This document shows positions 21,049 through 59,531 of a stretch of DNA of 64,000 nucleotides, piece after piece; position 1 is the stretch's first letter, and each line of letters begins with the position of its first letter. Made by a program: the position numbers and the translations under genes. Below the pieces are notes generated by a model. The model searched no databases. It was not told where the DNA came from and saw nothing but the letters and a program-made list of their open reading frames with translations. Origin of the DNA: Antedon bifida (lineage: Eukaryota > Echinodermata > Crinoidea > Comatulida > Antedonidae); assembly GCA_963402885.1 (NCBI GenBank), contig OY727094.1, positions 30,444,501 through 30,508,500 of the forward strand, in the 5' to 3' direction.

Positions 21049-21212
21049 CTATGGAGATTTTTTATACACATCCTCATGATCATTGCCACATACACATAAT
21101 GCTACCACAATAAAGAGAATAATTAGAATGACTATCAAACCGATTAGAACCAACCACCAGATGTCAATAGGAAGGTCATCCAGAGTACTAGATTGCTGAG
21201 AATTCGGATTAA
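21049..21212 (-). CDS. Gene A last exon: TM helix and cytoplasmic tail
   Basis: Starts with two bases of a split codon after TTTTCTAG. Encodes a serine-rich stalk (NPNSQQSSTLDDLP), a hydrophobic helix (IWWLVLIGLIVILIILFIVV), a Cys pair (CVC) suited to acylation, and a 13-residue tail (GNDHEDVYKKSP region) before TAG. No known signalling motif is visible in the tail. Confidence 0.88.
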
Positions 21213-57400: not shown

Positions 57401-59531
57401 GCGTATTTCGAGGGGTAGAGTGTTCCAGAGTTTTGGGGCTGCGACATCATCGTTAAAGCAAGAATATGGAATACTTTTTGGTTGCACAAATATTTATTTC
57501 CTCCATTAAGATTTTAAATTATTACTTGTTGAATGGTACAGTGGTTTGCAGCAAGACGGTGGATATACTGGACATTCAATTCAATGTATTTTGTTTTTCA
57601 AAACAAAAAAATAAGGATAATAATAATAATTGTTCTTTTTTTTTGTATATTCACAGATTAATACATTTGTTTATAAATTATAAATGTATATTAGTTAAGA
57701 CCAGGGACTGTTAACTCTTCTAGTTACAGTAATCTTAATTACTTTAGCAGTCCCTGTCCAATTTATCCCTGTATATTTTATCTTATGGTTTGTTGGTCAA
57801 ATAAATAAATGAAATGAAAATGAAATAAAACCCGAAAATATTTACCGACAAAGGAAAAATAACGTTTATAGTATTGTATTATTTTCCGTTTTCAAGAAGA
57901 ATCTAGTAAGTCAGGTATTTACAGTTCATAGTTATTATTGTTGGTACTGTATTTCATTCGCGTATTCTAAACAAATATTTGTAATAAAATGAACGTGGGG
58001 ATTGTAGTCCAACATTTACACAGGTTCTGTAAGAAATAGTGGCACATTTAAGGAACCTATTTTGGACATGTAGGCTTGTACCTACCATGGACTTATACAT
58101 TTATAGGCCCATGCTTGTACACTATATGTGCTGAGTCTAGTCCAGTATGTATAAATTATTTTTTTAAAATAAAAATAGGAGATACAGTATGCTGTATATA
58201 GCACTTGACTCATAATATAAATAACAATGAAAAACTTCAACTTATCATTCTATGCAAAATGAAATCCACTGTGAAAGCATACAAAAGAAAAAGGATTTTC
58301 CAAATGGCTAGATACGGTCGTGACATTGTTCTGTTCTCTTCAACCGAACACACTTTCAAGTCAGGCATACCACAGTTTAAAACCAACTATTTTATTATAC
58401 TGTTATATATATTTTTTTCATTTTAAGGTACAAGCAAATAATACTCATTGTATATACTTATTACGAAATTTGAATGACATTGCGCCCACATATTTTTACA
58501 CCTCCATACTTTGTACAACAAGGTACTGTACACAAACTATGGGTTACTTGGTAGATACTCCTTTTCATTTGTATATATGTAATGGTAATGGCTACTGACA
58601 GTACTTCAGGTGGAATAACATTAAAACTGATTCAAATATGGATTCATAATAATGCAATGTCTAATATATATATATATATGGAAAATACTAATATTTCATC
58701 AGTTGTATAGCATGGAGAAAAAGTTATTATTCTAACTTATTTCTCCGTGCTTTGACACATTCCTATTCAGTTAAGAATACTAAGTATTACGTATGAAACA
58801 ATTGTTAAAGCAGTACAACCAAAGGGACACTATTAACTTACTACAGTTTACTTTGTTGGTCCCGAATGTGTCCCCTAACAAGGGTTCTACTGTACTTTAA
58901 TTCATCGGACCAAGTGCTTGACATATCAATACATTTAACTACATCATTCATTCAATTAAAACAACTATGATCCAAGTGAAAATTGATTTGGTCATTATGA
59001 CTTCTAATATAATTATTAATTGTAGACCTATGATAATTTTCAACGTGGTATGGCATGAACCATAGAGATATTATAGTTCACTATAATATCTCTATGCATG
59101 AACAATAATTATATTGAGGATTCATATTCTCATAACTGTTATAAATAATACAATAATAGGACAATTGTTATTGCTTGTAAAACTTACAGTATATACTATT
59201 ATTCATGCCCATTTATAATGAACTGTGTTACGGTATATACGAACGTTTATTTTATGTATGATCGATAAATAGATTTTACTTTATGTAATATATACAGTTT
59301 GTAACGTTACAATGACGTAACTGGTTTACCTTTTACATATGGTGAAGCATCTGATGTTGACAGAACAAACGGTGGGAAACTGGTCTGTGCTGAGACACCG
59401 ATCCCATGATTGGGCGTCCGTGTCGTACAGGCCTCTTGTGGTGCTCCAGTTTGGTATCCAGCAATTAATGAAACAAGTTGAATTATCACGATTAAATATC
59501 CGACATATGTACTAGAAATTGACGGTAACAT
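48322..59531 (-). CDS. Gene B: Reeler-(EGF)12-TM cell-surface protein
   Basis: Paralogue of gene A, in the same orientation and 3.1 kb upstream of it in transcriptional order. 16 exons with consistent phases predict 671 aa: signal peptide, Reeler domain in three exons (phases 1-2-1, last exon 65 nt as in gene A), 12 EGF exons of class 1-1, then a TM/tail exon. Six repeats carry the O-glucose sequon CSS(N/T)PC and three an O-fucose sequon. Five repeats are calcium-binding type (D-I-N/D-E-C with N..N.F). One EGF relic lies at 52841-52923. The tail (CYCECYKSEPEHIAYY) differs entirely from that of gene A. Function is not known; a surface adhesion or recognition receptor is inferred. Confidence 0.85.
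48886..49002 (-). CDS. Gene B exon: EGF repeat 12 (membrane-proximal)
   Basis: 39 codons (CVDTPCKNSGMC). No Notch-type sequon. An N-glycosylation motif NCS follows the fifth cysteine. Confidence 0.87.
49069..49248. mobile_element. Inverted-repeat element, family 2, copy 3
   Basis: Ends GCGTGGTTCCCACTAGAAC and CTAGTGGGAACCAAGCTTAA with inner ACGTTGCG words. The centre is GC-rich (CAGGCGGGGGC), unlike the other copies. Confidence 0.75.
49340..49894. mobile_element. Inverted-repeat MITE, family 3, copy 2
   Basis: Ends TTAAAGATGTATTGTCCC and GGGACAATACATCTTTAA are perfect inverses. About 555 bp with repeated GTCAAAG/TTCGA words inside; no coding frame. TTAA lies at both borders. Confidence 0.8.
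49960..50067 (-). CDS. Gene B exon: EGF repeat 11
   Basis: 36 codons. Only three residues lie between the first two cysteines (CVPSC), the shortest such loop in either gene. Confidence 0.86.
50302..50424 (-). CDS. Gene B exon: EGF repeat 10
   Basis: 41 codons (CSPNPCQNSGNC...SPLYTCVC). Sister of repeat 6, with a Pro-rich end QTPPSG. O-fucose site lost (Asn). Confidence 0.88.
51010..51120 (-). CDS. Gene B exon: EGF repeat 9 (calcium-binding type)
   Basis: 37 codons. DIDECSSNPC start with NINSFNC gives the calcium-binding EGF consensus. O-glucose sequon CSSNPC. Confidence 0.88.
51372..51482 (-). CDS. Gene B exon: EGF repeat 8 (calcium-binding type)
   Basis: 37 codons, nearly identical to repeat 9 at DNA level, including flanking intron (offset 362 bp). 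O-glucose sequon CSSNPC. Confidence 0.88.
51735..51842 (-). CDS. Gene B exon: EGF repeat 7
   Basis: 36 codons. O-glucose sequon CSSTPC; Ala replaces Ser/Thr at the O-fucose position (CLNGGAC). Confidence 0.88.
52091..52213 (-). CDS. Gene B exon: EGF repeat 6
   Basis: 41 codons (CNPNPCQNSGSC...SPLYSCTC). O-fucose sequon CQNSGSC. Source of the partial copy at 52841-52923. Confidence 0.88.
52420..52556. mobile_element. Foldback MITE, family 1, copy 11
   Basis: Right end TTTGATAGTGTAGACAAAGC is clear; the left end is eroded. The interior (ATAATGGACATGATGATGTC) also appears in the duplicated fragment at 52924-53021. Confidence 0.85.
52701..52811 (-). CDS. Gene B exon: EGF repeat 5 (calcium-binding type)
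   Basis: 37 codons. DINECSSNPC start; protein identical to repeat 4. O-glucose sequon CSSNPC. Confidence 0.88.
52841..52923 (-). pseudogene. Gene B: EGF exon relic (copy of repeat 6)
   Basis: Internal part of a repeat-6-type exon (SCSRISSSPLYSCTC region) with both splice sites missing. It is fused on one side to intron next to repeat 5 and on the other to a MITE fragment. Formed by tandem duplication with internal deletion. Confidence 0.85.
52924..53021. mobile_element. Foldback MITE fragment, family 1 (duplicated with host DNA)
   Basis: Right half of the MITE at 52420-52556, copied as part of a roughly 424 bp tandem duplication rather than by a new insertion. One end is eroded to GTTTGTAGTGT. 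Confidence 0.85.
53125..53235 (-). CDS. Gene B exon: EGF repeat 4 (calcium-binding type)
   Basis: 37 codons. Same protein as repeat 5, and flanking intron nearly identical over about 150 bp. O-glucose sequon CSSNPC. Confidence 0.88.
53369..53479 (-). CDS. Gene B exon: EGF repeat 3 (calcium-binding type)
   Basis: 37 codons. Diverged member of the DINEC group (CANGIC, NFFTCTCFSGYFG). O-glucose sequon CSSNPC. Confidence 0.88.
53942..54058 (-). CDS. Gene B exon: EGF repeat 2
   Basis: 39 codons (CNPDPCQNQGTCFQSASSS). O-fucose sequon CQNQGTC. Closest in style to the young repeats of gene A (CFQ...TNCE). Confidence 0.88.
54885..55004 (-). CDS. Gene B exon: EGF repeat 1
   Basis: 40 codons; first EGF after the Reeler domain. 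O-fucose sequon CQNAATC. Resembles the gene A modules (CLQSQSNAYICQCQSG). Confidence 0.88.
55220..55284 (-). CDS. Gene B exon: last Reeler strand
   Basis: 65 nt, phases 2-1 as in gene A. Encodes ATIVLNQATFWVDV, a textbook Reeler end, followed by a Ser/Thr linker (TSSTTTS). Confidence 0.87.
55914..56145 (-). CDS. Gene B exon: central Reeler region
   Basis: 232 nt, phase 1 in and phase 2 out. Encodes IKGFLIQGRQGSVNGG, VGTWLAA, LLECTN, SITHINNADK and LEFLWNPGSTNTGNIIF, matching Reeler order. Starts after TTCTTTCAG. Confidence 0.88.
56698..56858. mobile_element. Foldback MITE, family 1, copy 12
   Basis: Left AAGCTCTACCTACACTATC and right ATAGTGTAGCAGAGCTTTA. Interior has ATGGTAGTGATATGACATA. 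Confidence 0.88.
57241..57440. repeat. Interspersed repeat with AAT microsatellite start
   Basis: Begins with an (AAT)n tract, then ATTTATAAAGCGCAAGAG and further on AGAGTGTTCCAGAGTTTTG. These words are familiar from dispersed repeats of marine invertebrates, but I cannot name the family. Confidence 0.4.
58821..58896. mobile_element. Fragment of CAGTAGAAC-type element
   Basis: Right end GGGTTCTACTGTAC is intact, with GTGTCCCCTAACAAG before it, the inverse of the other copies. The left end is degraded (AAAGGGACACTATT). Confidence 0.5.
59053..59103. repeat. Perfect short palindrome flanked by direct repeats
   Basis: CATAGAGATATTATAG and its exact inverse surround TTCA, and the whole is bracketed by the 8-bp direct repeat GCATGAAC (59053-59060 and 59096-59103). 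Confidence 0.85.
59330..59531 (-). CDS. Gene B first exon: signal peptide and Reeler start
   Basis: ATG at 59529-59531. Hydrophobic signal GYLIVIIQLVSLIAG, then YQTGAPQEACTTRTPNHG, the Reeler GAP-x-x-C-x-x-x-P-x-H-G start, and DASPYVK. Ends with one base of a Val codon, as in gene A. Confidence 0.88.

What the first reader, a model, noticed from the sequence alone, without database searches (positions are those of the whole stretch)
21049..59531. A tandem pair of Reeler-(EGF)n-TM receptors, an architecture I cannot match to a named family
Genes A and B both encode signal peptide, complete Reeler domain, an EGF array, one TM helix and a short tail. Frames add up exactly over all exons (4020 and 2016 nt). 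The three Reeler exons have the same phases in both, and the last is 65 nt in both. Reeler domains are known in Reelin, F-spondin, reductases and insect immune proteins; I do not know them joined to Notch-like EGF arrays. A surface adhesion, neural guidance or recognition role is inference.
Basis: partly seen in the sequence, partly recalled or inferred. Interest (0 to 1): 0.85.

Follow-up and report, generated by a model that had tools for sequence, protein, structure and literature searches.

The report
Feather-star Reeler–EGF cell-surface receptor family
Two neighbouring genes, most likely from a feather star, encode predicted cell-surface proteins with a Reeler head on a stalk of EGF repeats; they are divergent members of an unnamed echinoderm gene family rather than a one-off.

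Summary
Two minus-strand genes splice cleanly: A (45221..21049, 32 exons, 4020 nt, 1339 aa) and B (59531..48322, 16 exons, 2016 nt, 671 aa). Each has an N-terminal hydrophobic segment, a full Reeler domain (Pfam E 1e-24 and 5e-21), 28 or 12 phase 1-1 EGF exons, one TM-like segment and a short tail.

The reading changes in three ways. (1) They are neighbours, not recent twins: their Reelers are 30% identical and do not group, and the exon-2 phases fit all 10 other Reeler loci read. (2) The genome has a family: 11 of 12 Reeler hits have EGF exons downstream; a third gene was spliced with the same order. A TM exon is shown only in these three. (3) Relatives exist as unnamed or misnamed proteins: a gene B ortholog in Anneissia ("fibropellin-1-like"), one in Antedon, and a brittle-star protein with the same order and a TM segment like that of A. 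Sea-star and urchin relatives add HYR domains; one has a kinase.

Best reading: recognition/adhesion receptors with a Reeler head, EGF stalk and no signalling domain. Function is inferred. My paper searches showed no named family.

The parts
45002..45221 (-). Gene A exon 1: start codon, signal-peptide-like segment, N-terminal part of Reeler (220 nt, phase out 1)
40433..40679 (-). Gene A exon 2: Reeler core (247 nt, phase 1-2)
39012..39076 (-). Gene A exon 3: end of Reeler (65 nt, phase 2-1)
21646..38455 (-). Gene A EGF array: 28 exons, one EGF each, all phase 1-1 (38455-38336, 37198-37079, 36955-36833, 35900-35781, 35659-35540, 35152-35033, 34780-34661, 34274-34158, 34024-33905, 33628-33515, 32946-32824, 29411-29289, 29138-29019, 28589-28470, 28039-27923, 27567-27442, 27015-26902, 26217-26095, 25883-25764, 25360-25247, 24822-24685, 24535-24431, 24055-23948, 23280-23164, 22906-22802, 22641-22519, 22162-22052, 21768-21646)
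21049..21212 (-). Gene A last exon: juxtamembrane stretch, TM-like segment, short tail, stop (164 nt)
59330..59531 (-). Gene B exon 1: start codon, signal-peptide-like segment, N-terminal part of Reeler (202 nt, phase out 1)
55914..56145 (-). Gene B exon 2: Reeler core (232 nt, phase 1-2)
55220..55284 (-). Gene B exon 3: end of Reeler (65 nt, phase 2-1)
48886..55004 (-). Gene B EGF array: 12 exons, all phase 1-1 (55004-54885, 54058-53942, 53479-53369, 53235-53125, 52811-52701, 52213-52091, 51842-51735, 51482-51372, 51120-51010, 50424-50302, 50067-49960, 49002-48886); four stretches match the calcium-binding EGF profile
48322..48467 (-). Gene B last exon: juxtamembrane stretch, TM-like segment, short tail, stop (146 nt)
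35324..37752 (-). Recent tandem duplication inside gene A: 35324-36461 against 36622-37752, 95.6% identical, two EGF exons in each copy
36504..36608 (-). EGF-like pseudo-exon in gene A: six cysteines and a GT donor but no in-frame AG acceptor; left out of the model
52595..53248 (-). Recent duplication inside gene B: 52595-52826 against 53019-53248, 97.8% identical, one EGF exon in each

Best explanation
Genes A and B are two long-diverged members of an echinoderm family of Reeler-EGF proteins, and both are type I membrane receptors (signal peptide - Reeler - EGF array - one TM helix - short tail). Shown by sequence: the architecture of A, B and one paralog, the multigene family in this genome, relatives in other echinoderm classes, and growth of the arrays by exon duplication. 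Inferred: the Reeler head is the binding module, held away from the membrane by the EGF stalk; the tail is too short to signal alone, so the protein acts by adhesion or capture, or with a partner. My first choice is recognition of non-self or damaged surfaces, in line with microbe-binding arthropod Reeler proteins; close second is cell-cell or cell-matrix adhesion.
Against: No expression, cDNA or ligand data. A protein search with the gene A Reeler found no relative at E 1e-3. A TM exon was found in 1 of 9 further loci scanned (C7b only): in C12a, C12c and C13 several kb of downstream DNA were held and none was seen, though my filter required a Trp nearby; the 3' ends of the others are not held. 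P0001, P0011 and P0012 show no C-terminal TM segment. The shuffle test is not specific: AstRTK (P0015) against P0002, which has no Reeler, also has 0 of 1000 (score 63), and A against P0014 has 1 (score 65); B matches less well (2 of 1000 against P0016, 10 against C7b, 33 against A). The Reeler tree is poorly resolved (10 of 14 inner branches open), and B, its ortholog, C13 and the mussel reductase P0009 share an open fork (83/92), so the Reeler-EGF join may not have a single origin. Arthropod Reeler proteins are small single-domain proteins, so transferring their function is a long step.
Confidence: 0.45

Rival explanations
1. Adhesion or guidance receptor of epithelium, nerve or connective tissue: the Reeler head binds matrix (a role recalled for Reelin and F-spondin), and the EGF array gives homophilic or Notch-like contacts; no immune role.
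For: Reeler fold matches F-spondin; B has four calcium-binding EGF stretches; consensus sites for Notch-type sugars (patterns recalled): O-glucose 7 of 28 EGFs in A and 6 of 12 in B, O-fucose 15 of 28 and 3 of 12, O-GlcNAc 11 of 28 and 7 of 12.
Against: Many divergent copies in clusters with recently duplicated exons fit a diversifying recognition role at least as well; no guidance-type tail was found.
Confidence: 0.32
2. Chiefly secreted matrix proteins of the fibropellin kind; the TM exon is used by few members or few transcripts.
For: The Anneissia relatives are named fibropellin-1-like, and 3 of 3 crinoid database proteins with a Reeler (P0001, P0011, P0012) show no C-terminal TM segment; a TM exon was seen in 1 of 9 further loci.
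Against: TM stretches of A, C7b and a brittle-star protein align far above shuffles and above every other pair tested; A and B have no CUB or avidin match. P0011 and P0001 may be partial models.
Confidence: 0.2
3. The Reeler exons belong to a separate short gene and the reader joined it to an EGF gene by mistake.
For: No cDNA; gene A introns 1 and 2 are long (4.3 and 1.4 kb).
Against: Phases fit exactly in A, B and C7b; Reeler and EGF lie in one predicted chain in P0001, P0011, P0012, P0013, P0014, P0015 and P0016; 11 of 12 Reeler hits have EGF exons downstream.
Confidence: 0.03

Closest known systems
Anneissia japonica fibropellin-1-like isoform X12 (P0012)
   Same: Ortholog of gene B by Reeler tree (99/99) and 48% identity over 602 aligned columns; Reeler then EGF array
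   Different: This isoform has no C-terminal TM segment
Amphiura filiformis uncharacterized protein (P0016)
   Same: N-terminal hydrophobic segment, Reeler (E 2.7e-7, profile positions 19-126 of 131), EGF array, TM stretch like that of A and C7b, 16 residues after it
   Different: Very divergent Reeler (27% identical to A); brittle star
Asterias amurensis P0013 and Diadema antillarum P0014
   Same: N-terminal Reeler followed by EGFs; one C-terminal TM-like segment
   Different: HYR domain between the EGFs and the membrane, and tails of 155 and 211 residues
Asterias amurensis P0015
   Same: N-terminal Reeler, EGF array, TM-like segment
   Different: HYR domains (two stretches) and a C-terminal protein kinase domain (PF07714, E 9e-62), so a likely receptor kinase
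F-spondin (Spondin-1) Reeler domain
   Different: F-spondin has Spondin_N and TSP1 domains (recalled); no EGF array or TM
Notch and its ligands
   Same: EGF repeats of the same kind; P0011 model matches Notch-1 EGFs
   Different: No LNR, ankyrin or DSL domain matched in A or B; short tail
Arthropod single-Reeler immune proteins (Noduler, PcReeler, LvReeler)
   Same: Reeler domain; reported binding of bacteria or polysaccharide (PMC12113285, passages)
   Different: Small secreted proteins; in LvReelers and Noduler the Reeler spans nearly the whole protein (same passages)

Membership tests
Reeler domain proteins (PF02014) | Complete Reeler domain above curated cut-off | tested here: met
   A 88.0 bits, B 76.1 bits against cut-off 21, positions 1-131 of 131
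Echinoderm Reeler-EGF-TM proteins (unnamed; P0016 and C7b as reference) | Reeler, then EGF array, then one TM-like segment and short tail, in that order | tested here: met
Echinoderm Reeler-EGF-TM proteins (unnamed; P0016 and C7b as reference) | Homologous juxtamembrane/TM stretch, gene A | tested here: met
   Scores 100 and 88 against C7b and P0016, 0 of 1000 shuffles; highest of 28 pairs together with C7b-P0016
Echinoderm Reeler-EGF-TM proteins (unnamed; P0016 and C7b as reference) | Homologous juxtamembrane/TM stretch, gene B | tested here: inconclusive
   2 of 1000 against P0016, 10 against C7b, 33 against A, in a test where one pair with a Reeler-less protein gave 0
Fibropellin | CUB and C-terminal avidin-like domain beside the EGFs (recalled) | tested here: not met
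   No CUB or avidin match in A or B at E 1e-3
Notch receptor | LNR repeats and cytoplasmic ankyrin repeats (recalled) | tested here: not met
   No such match at E 1e-3; few residues after the TM segment
Delta/Jagged ligand | DSL domain (recalled) | tested here: not met
   No DSL match in A or B; only EGF models derived from these ligands match B
Reelin | Reelin repeats (BNR-EGF-BNR) after the Reeler (recalled) | tested here: not met
   No BNR or reelin-repeat match in A or B at E 1e-3
F-spondin | Spondin_N and TSP1 domains (recalled) | tested here: not met
   No match in A or B at E 1e-3
FRRS1-type reductase | Further domains after the Reeler (DOMON and cytochrome b561, names recalled; PF03188 and PF03351 in P0009) | tested here: not met
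   No such match in A or B at E 1e-3
Any of the above, by function | Ligand bound and cell type of expression | not testable with these tools
   No expression or binding data held

The most novel reading that the evidence does not exclude
Echinoderms evolved a large, fast-diversifying system of Reeler-headed surface receptors, in which divergent Reeler heads, EGF arrays of 6 to more than 30 units built from interchangeable phase 1-1 exons, and alternative ends (secreted, short-tailed TM, HYR with long tail, HYR with kinase) make a recognition repertoire for immunity or self/non-self, with a receptor-kinase branch able to signal.
Probability: 0.22. Interest if true: 0.8.

Novelty: new variant of a known kind. 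Interest (0 to 1): 0.52.

Why it matters
Reeler domains are discussed mostly in Reelin, F-spondin, reductases and arthropod immune proteins. A family joining them to Notch-like EGF stalks and, in some members, a membrane anchor, found in crinoids and an ophiuroid with HYR-bearing cousins in a sea star and an urchin and a kinase-bearing one in the sea star, would be an unnamed receptor class hidden under names such as fibropellin-1-like. It gives direct targets for asking what Reeler domains bind and how echinoderm cells recognise matrix or microbes.

Tried and rejected
Rejected: that A and B are a recent tandem duplication (Reelers 30% identical; 32% over exons 2 and 3); that the 65-nt third exon is a mark of the pair; fibropellin, Notch, Delta, Reelin, F-spondin and FRRS1 membership; the weaker acceptor at 24804.

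Led nowhere: phmmer of single Reelers against the PDB (0 hits; the eight-row profile found 3); protein search with the gene A Reeler (none of 295 candidates); tblastn at E 0.05 for the P0015 kinase and HYR, the P0013 and P0014 HYR regions and the P0009 tail in the fetched loci and the window (none, but 3' ends of several loci are not held); TM exons in nine paralog loci (found in C7b only); naming the species by mitochondrial COX1 (tool did not complete). How many of the family carry a TM is unknown.

Mended on checking: C7b exon 3 was first ended at a weak donor (59 nt, 2604 nt in all); the stronger donor gives 86 nt, 2631 nt, 876 aa and agrees with P0011. A full table of TM pairs replaced the partial one. 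For this and the few TM exons found I lowered the main reading from 0.5 to 0.45 and the adhesion rival from 0.35 to 0.32.

Papers: ten searches, all used; nine on the subject and one on crinoid genomes. One search listed 30 of 173 papers. Passages only were read in PMC6208332, PMC12419799, PMC8889196, PMC7853314, PMC9365450, PMC10381214 and PMC12113285; the others were seen as listings with abstract starts.
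Full report
What was checked. The window is a 64-kb piece of a 315.6-Mb genome of 27 contigs. On its minus strand I rebuilt the two genes from open frames, EGF cysteine patterns, splice sites and phase. Gene A runs 45221..21049 in 32 exons with a coding length of 4020 nt; gene B runs 59531..48322 in 16 exons with 2016 nt. Neither has an internal stop. Donors are GT except one GC in A. The A start lies 3.1 kb from the B stop.

Domains. Pfam finds in each protein one complete Reeler (88.0 and 76.1 bits on the Reeler part, cut-off 21) and EGF arrays. 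By the six-cysteine pattern there are 28 EGF exons in A and 12 in B, one EGF each, all with phase 1 on both sides; the Pfam EGF profile alone passes 21 and 12 times. Hydropathy shows one N-terminal region and one strong C-terminal segment in each, with a few residues after it. The EGF pattern occurs 41 times on the coding strand of the region, 0 times on the other strand, and once in 20 shuffles together. The 41st match is a pseudo-exon at 36608-36504 that lacks an in-frame acceptor.

The genome holds a family. The Reeler profile has 12 hits in the genome, two of them in this window; the tool calls its counts lower bounds. I read a 20-kb stretch holding each of the ten others and mostly the DNA downstream. 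Nine of these ten have EGF-pattern exons downstream on the same strand; the exception is C1. The numbers within the held DNA run from 1 (C13) and 6 (C12a) to 32 (C12b) and 34 (C9). Gene ends were not established for most, so a neighbouring EGF gene could add to the larger counts. One of them, C7b at C7:10.149 Mb, was spliced end to end: 20 exons with Reeler, 16 EGF exons, TM and tail, 2631 nt and 876 aa with the stronger exon-3 donor. TM exons were sought in nine paralog loci and seen only in C7b. Eight spliced Reelers (A, B and six paralogs) were scanned one by one and 8 of 8 match PF02014.

Relation of A to B. In an alignment of 17 Reelers A and B are 30% identical. B groups with an Anneissia protein at 99/99 support; the place of A is open, as are 10 of 14 inner branches, and an open fork (83/92) puts B and its ortholog with C13 and a mussel reductase, so a single origin of the Reeler-EGF join is not shown. 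In exons 2 and 3, A is 41-46% and B 41-42% identical to the three C12 genes, more than to each other (32%). Exon 2 can be read as phase 1-2 with good sites in 10 of 10 other loci, C1 included, and exon 3 measures 59-71 nt in the eight where it was taken, or 86 nt in C7b with its stronger donor. The shared exon structure is therefore a general feature of Reeler genes here and not evidence of a recent pair. Inside the genes duplication is recent: 1.1 kb with two EGF exons at 95.6% identity in A, and 232 bp with one EGF exon at 97.8% in B.

Relatives elsewhere. Three searches of 5.8 billion proteins were made. The first, with the head of B, gave 10 hits, of which 2 carry a Reeler: P0001, Anneissia japonica fibropellin-1-like isoform X2 (Reeler and EGFs), and P0009, a mussel reductase; the rest match by EGFs. 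The second, with the head of A, gave none. The third, with a nine-row alignment, gave six: P0011 Antedon mediterranea (94% identical to C7b over 46% of it), P0012 Anneissia isoform X12, P0013 and P0015 Asterias amurensis, P0014 Diadema antillarum and P0016 Amphiura filiformis. Pfam confirms a Reeler and EGFs in 6 of 6, the Reeler of P0016 being partial and weak (E 2.7e-7). These searches reach only proteins of similar length that share short words, so absence elsewhere is not shown. The window most likely comes from an Antedon feather star; the species is not settled, since the mitochondrial test could not be run.

Order and ends. P0016 has Reeler, EGFs and a TM stretch. Among 28 pairs of TM/juxtamembrane stretches from eight proteins the three highest scores are C7b-P0016 (103), A-C7b (100) and A-P0016 (88), each reached by 0 of 1000 block shuffles; the next are A-P0014 (65, 1 of 1000) and P0015-P0002 (63, 0 of 1000), the latter with a protein that has no Reeler, so the shuffle count alone is not specific and the score gap carries the argument. 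B is weaker: 2 of 1000 against P0016, 10 against C7b, 33 against A. P0013 and P0014 place an HYR domain before the membrane and have tails of 155 and 211 residues. P0015 has an EGF array, HYR domains, a TM-like segment and a protein kinase domain. P0001, P0011 and P0012 show no C-terminal hydrophobic segment; they may be secreted isoforms or incomplete models.

How it probably works. Shown: the architecture of A, B and C7b and its likeness to P0016. Inferred: an outward Reeler head, an EGF stalk whose length changes by exon duplication, and a TM anchor with no signalling domain in the tail. Because every EGF exon in A and B begins and ends in phase 1, any of them can be skipped or duplicated without breaking the frame; the isoform numbers X2 and X12 in Anneissia annotations fit that, but I saw no RNA. 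Arthropod Reeler proteins are reported to bind bacteria and polysaccharide (PMC12113285, passages), which makes recognition of microbial or damaged surfaces my first choice; matrix adhesion is a close second.

Novelty. Nine paper searches on the subject showed no named Reeler-EGF-TM family in their listings or in the passages read; one search listed 30 of 173 papers. Most subscription papers are not in the library. Each module is known and relatives sit in databases under other names, so I file this as a new variant of a known kind (multidomain EGF-repeat receptors).

Noticed in passing
window 5620-5958 (+): Exon-like frame matching the PH region of G-protein-coupled receptor kinases 2/3 (E 6e-13 against GRK3 in the PDB; no Pfam match at 0.01); a further GRK-like stretch seems to follow near 8421-8672 (by eye).
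   Followed up: partly
window 60230-61207 (+): Open frame of 325 codons just beyond the 5' end of gene B on the other strand; no Pfam match at 0.01 and no PDB match better than E 0.78.
   Followed up: partly
window 46818-46936 (-): A 5S rRNA match (80 bits, full length) between genes A and B.
   Followed up: no
window 23377-23924: Tandem array of a 44-bp unit, 12.6 copies, in an intron of gene A.
   Followed up: no
window 208-256, 21409-21439, 37921-37964, 41787-41836, 56741-56788, 62864-62906: Recurring short units of the kind ATATGGTAGTGATATG in several places, which by eye look like a dispersed miniature element.
   Followed up: no
L033, 137-450 (C12:4705500+): Paralog C12b seems to carry a Kazal/agrin-like module after its EGF array (by eye only; open frame).
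   Followed up: no
P0015 (Asterias amurensis): A Reeler-EGF-HYR-kinase protein, apparently a receptor kinase with a Reeler head.
   Followed up: partly
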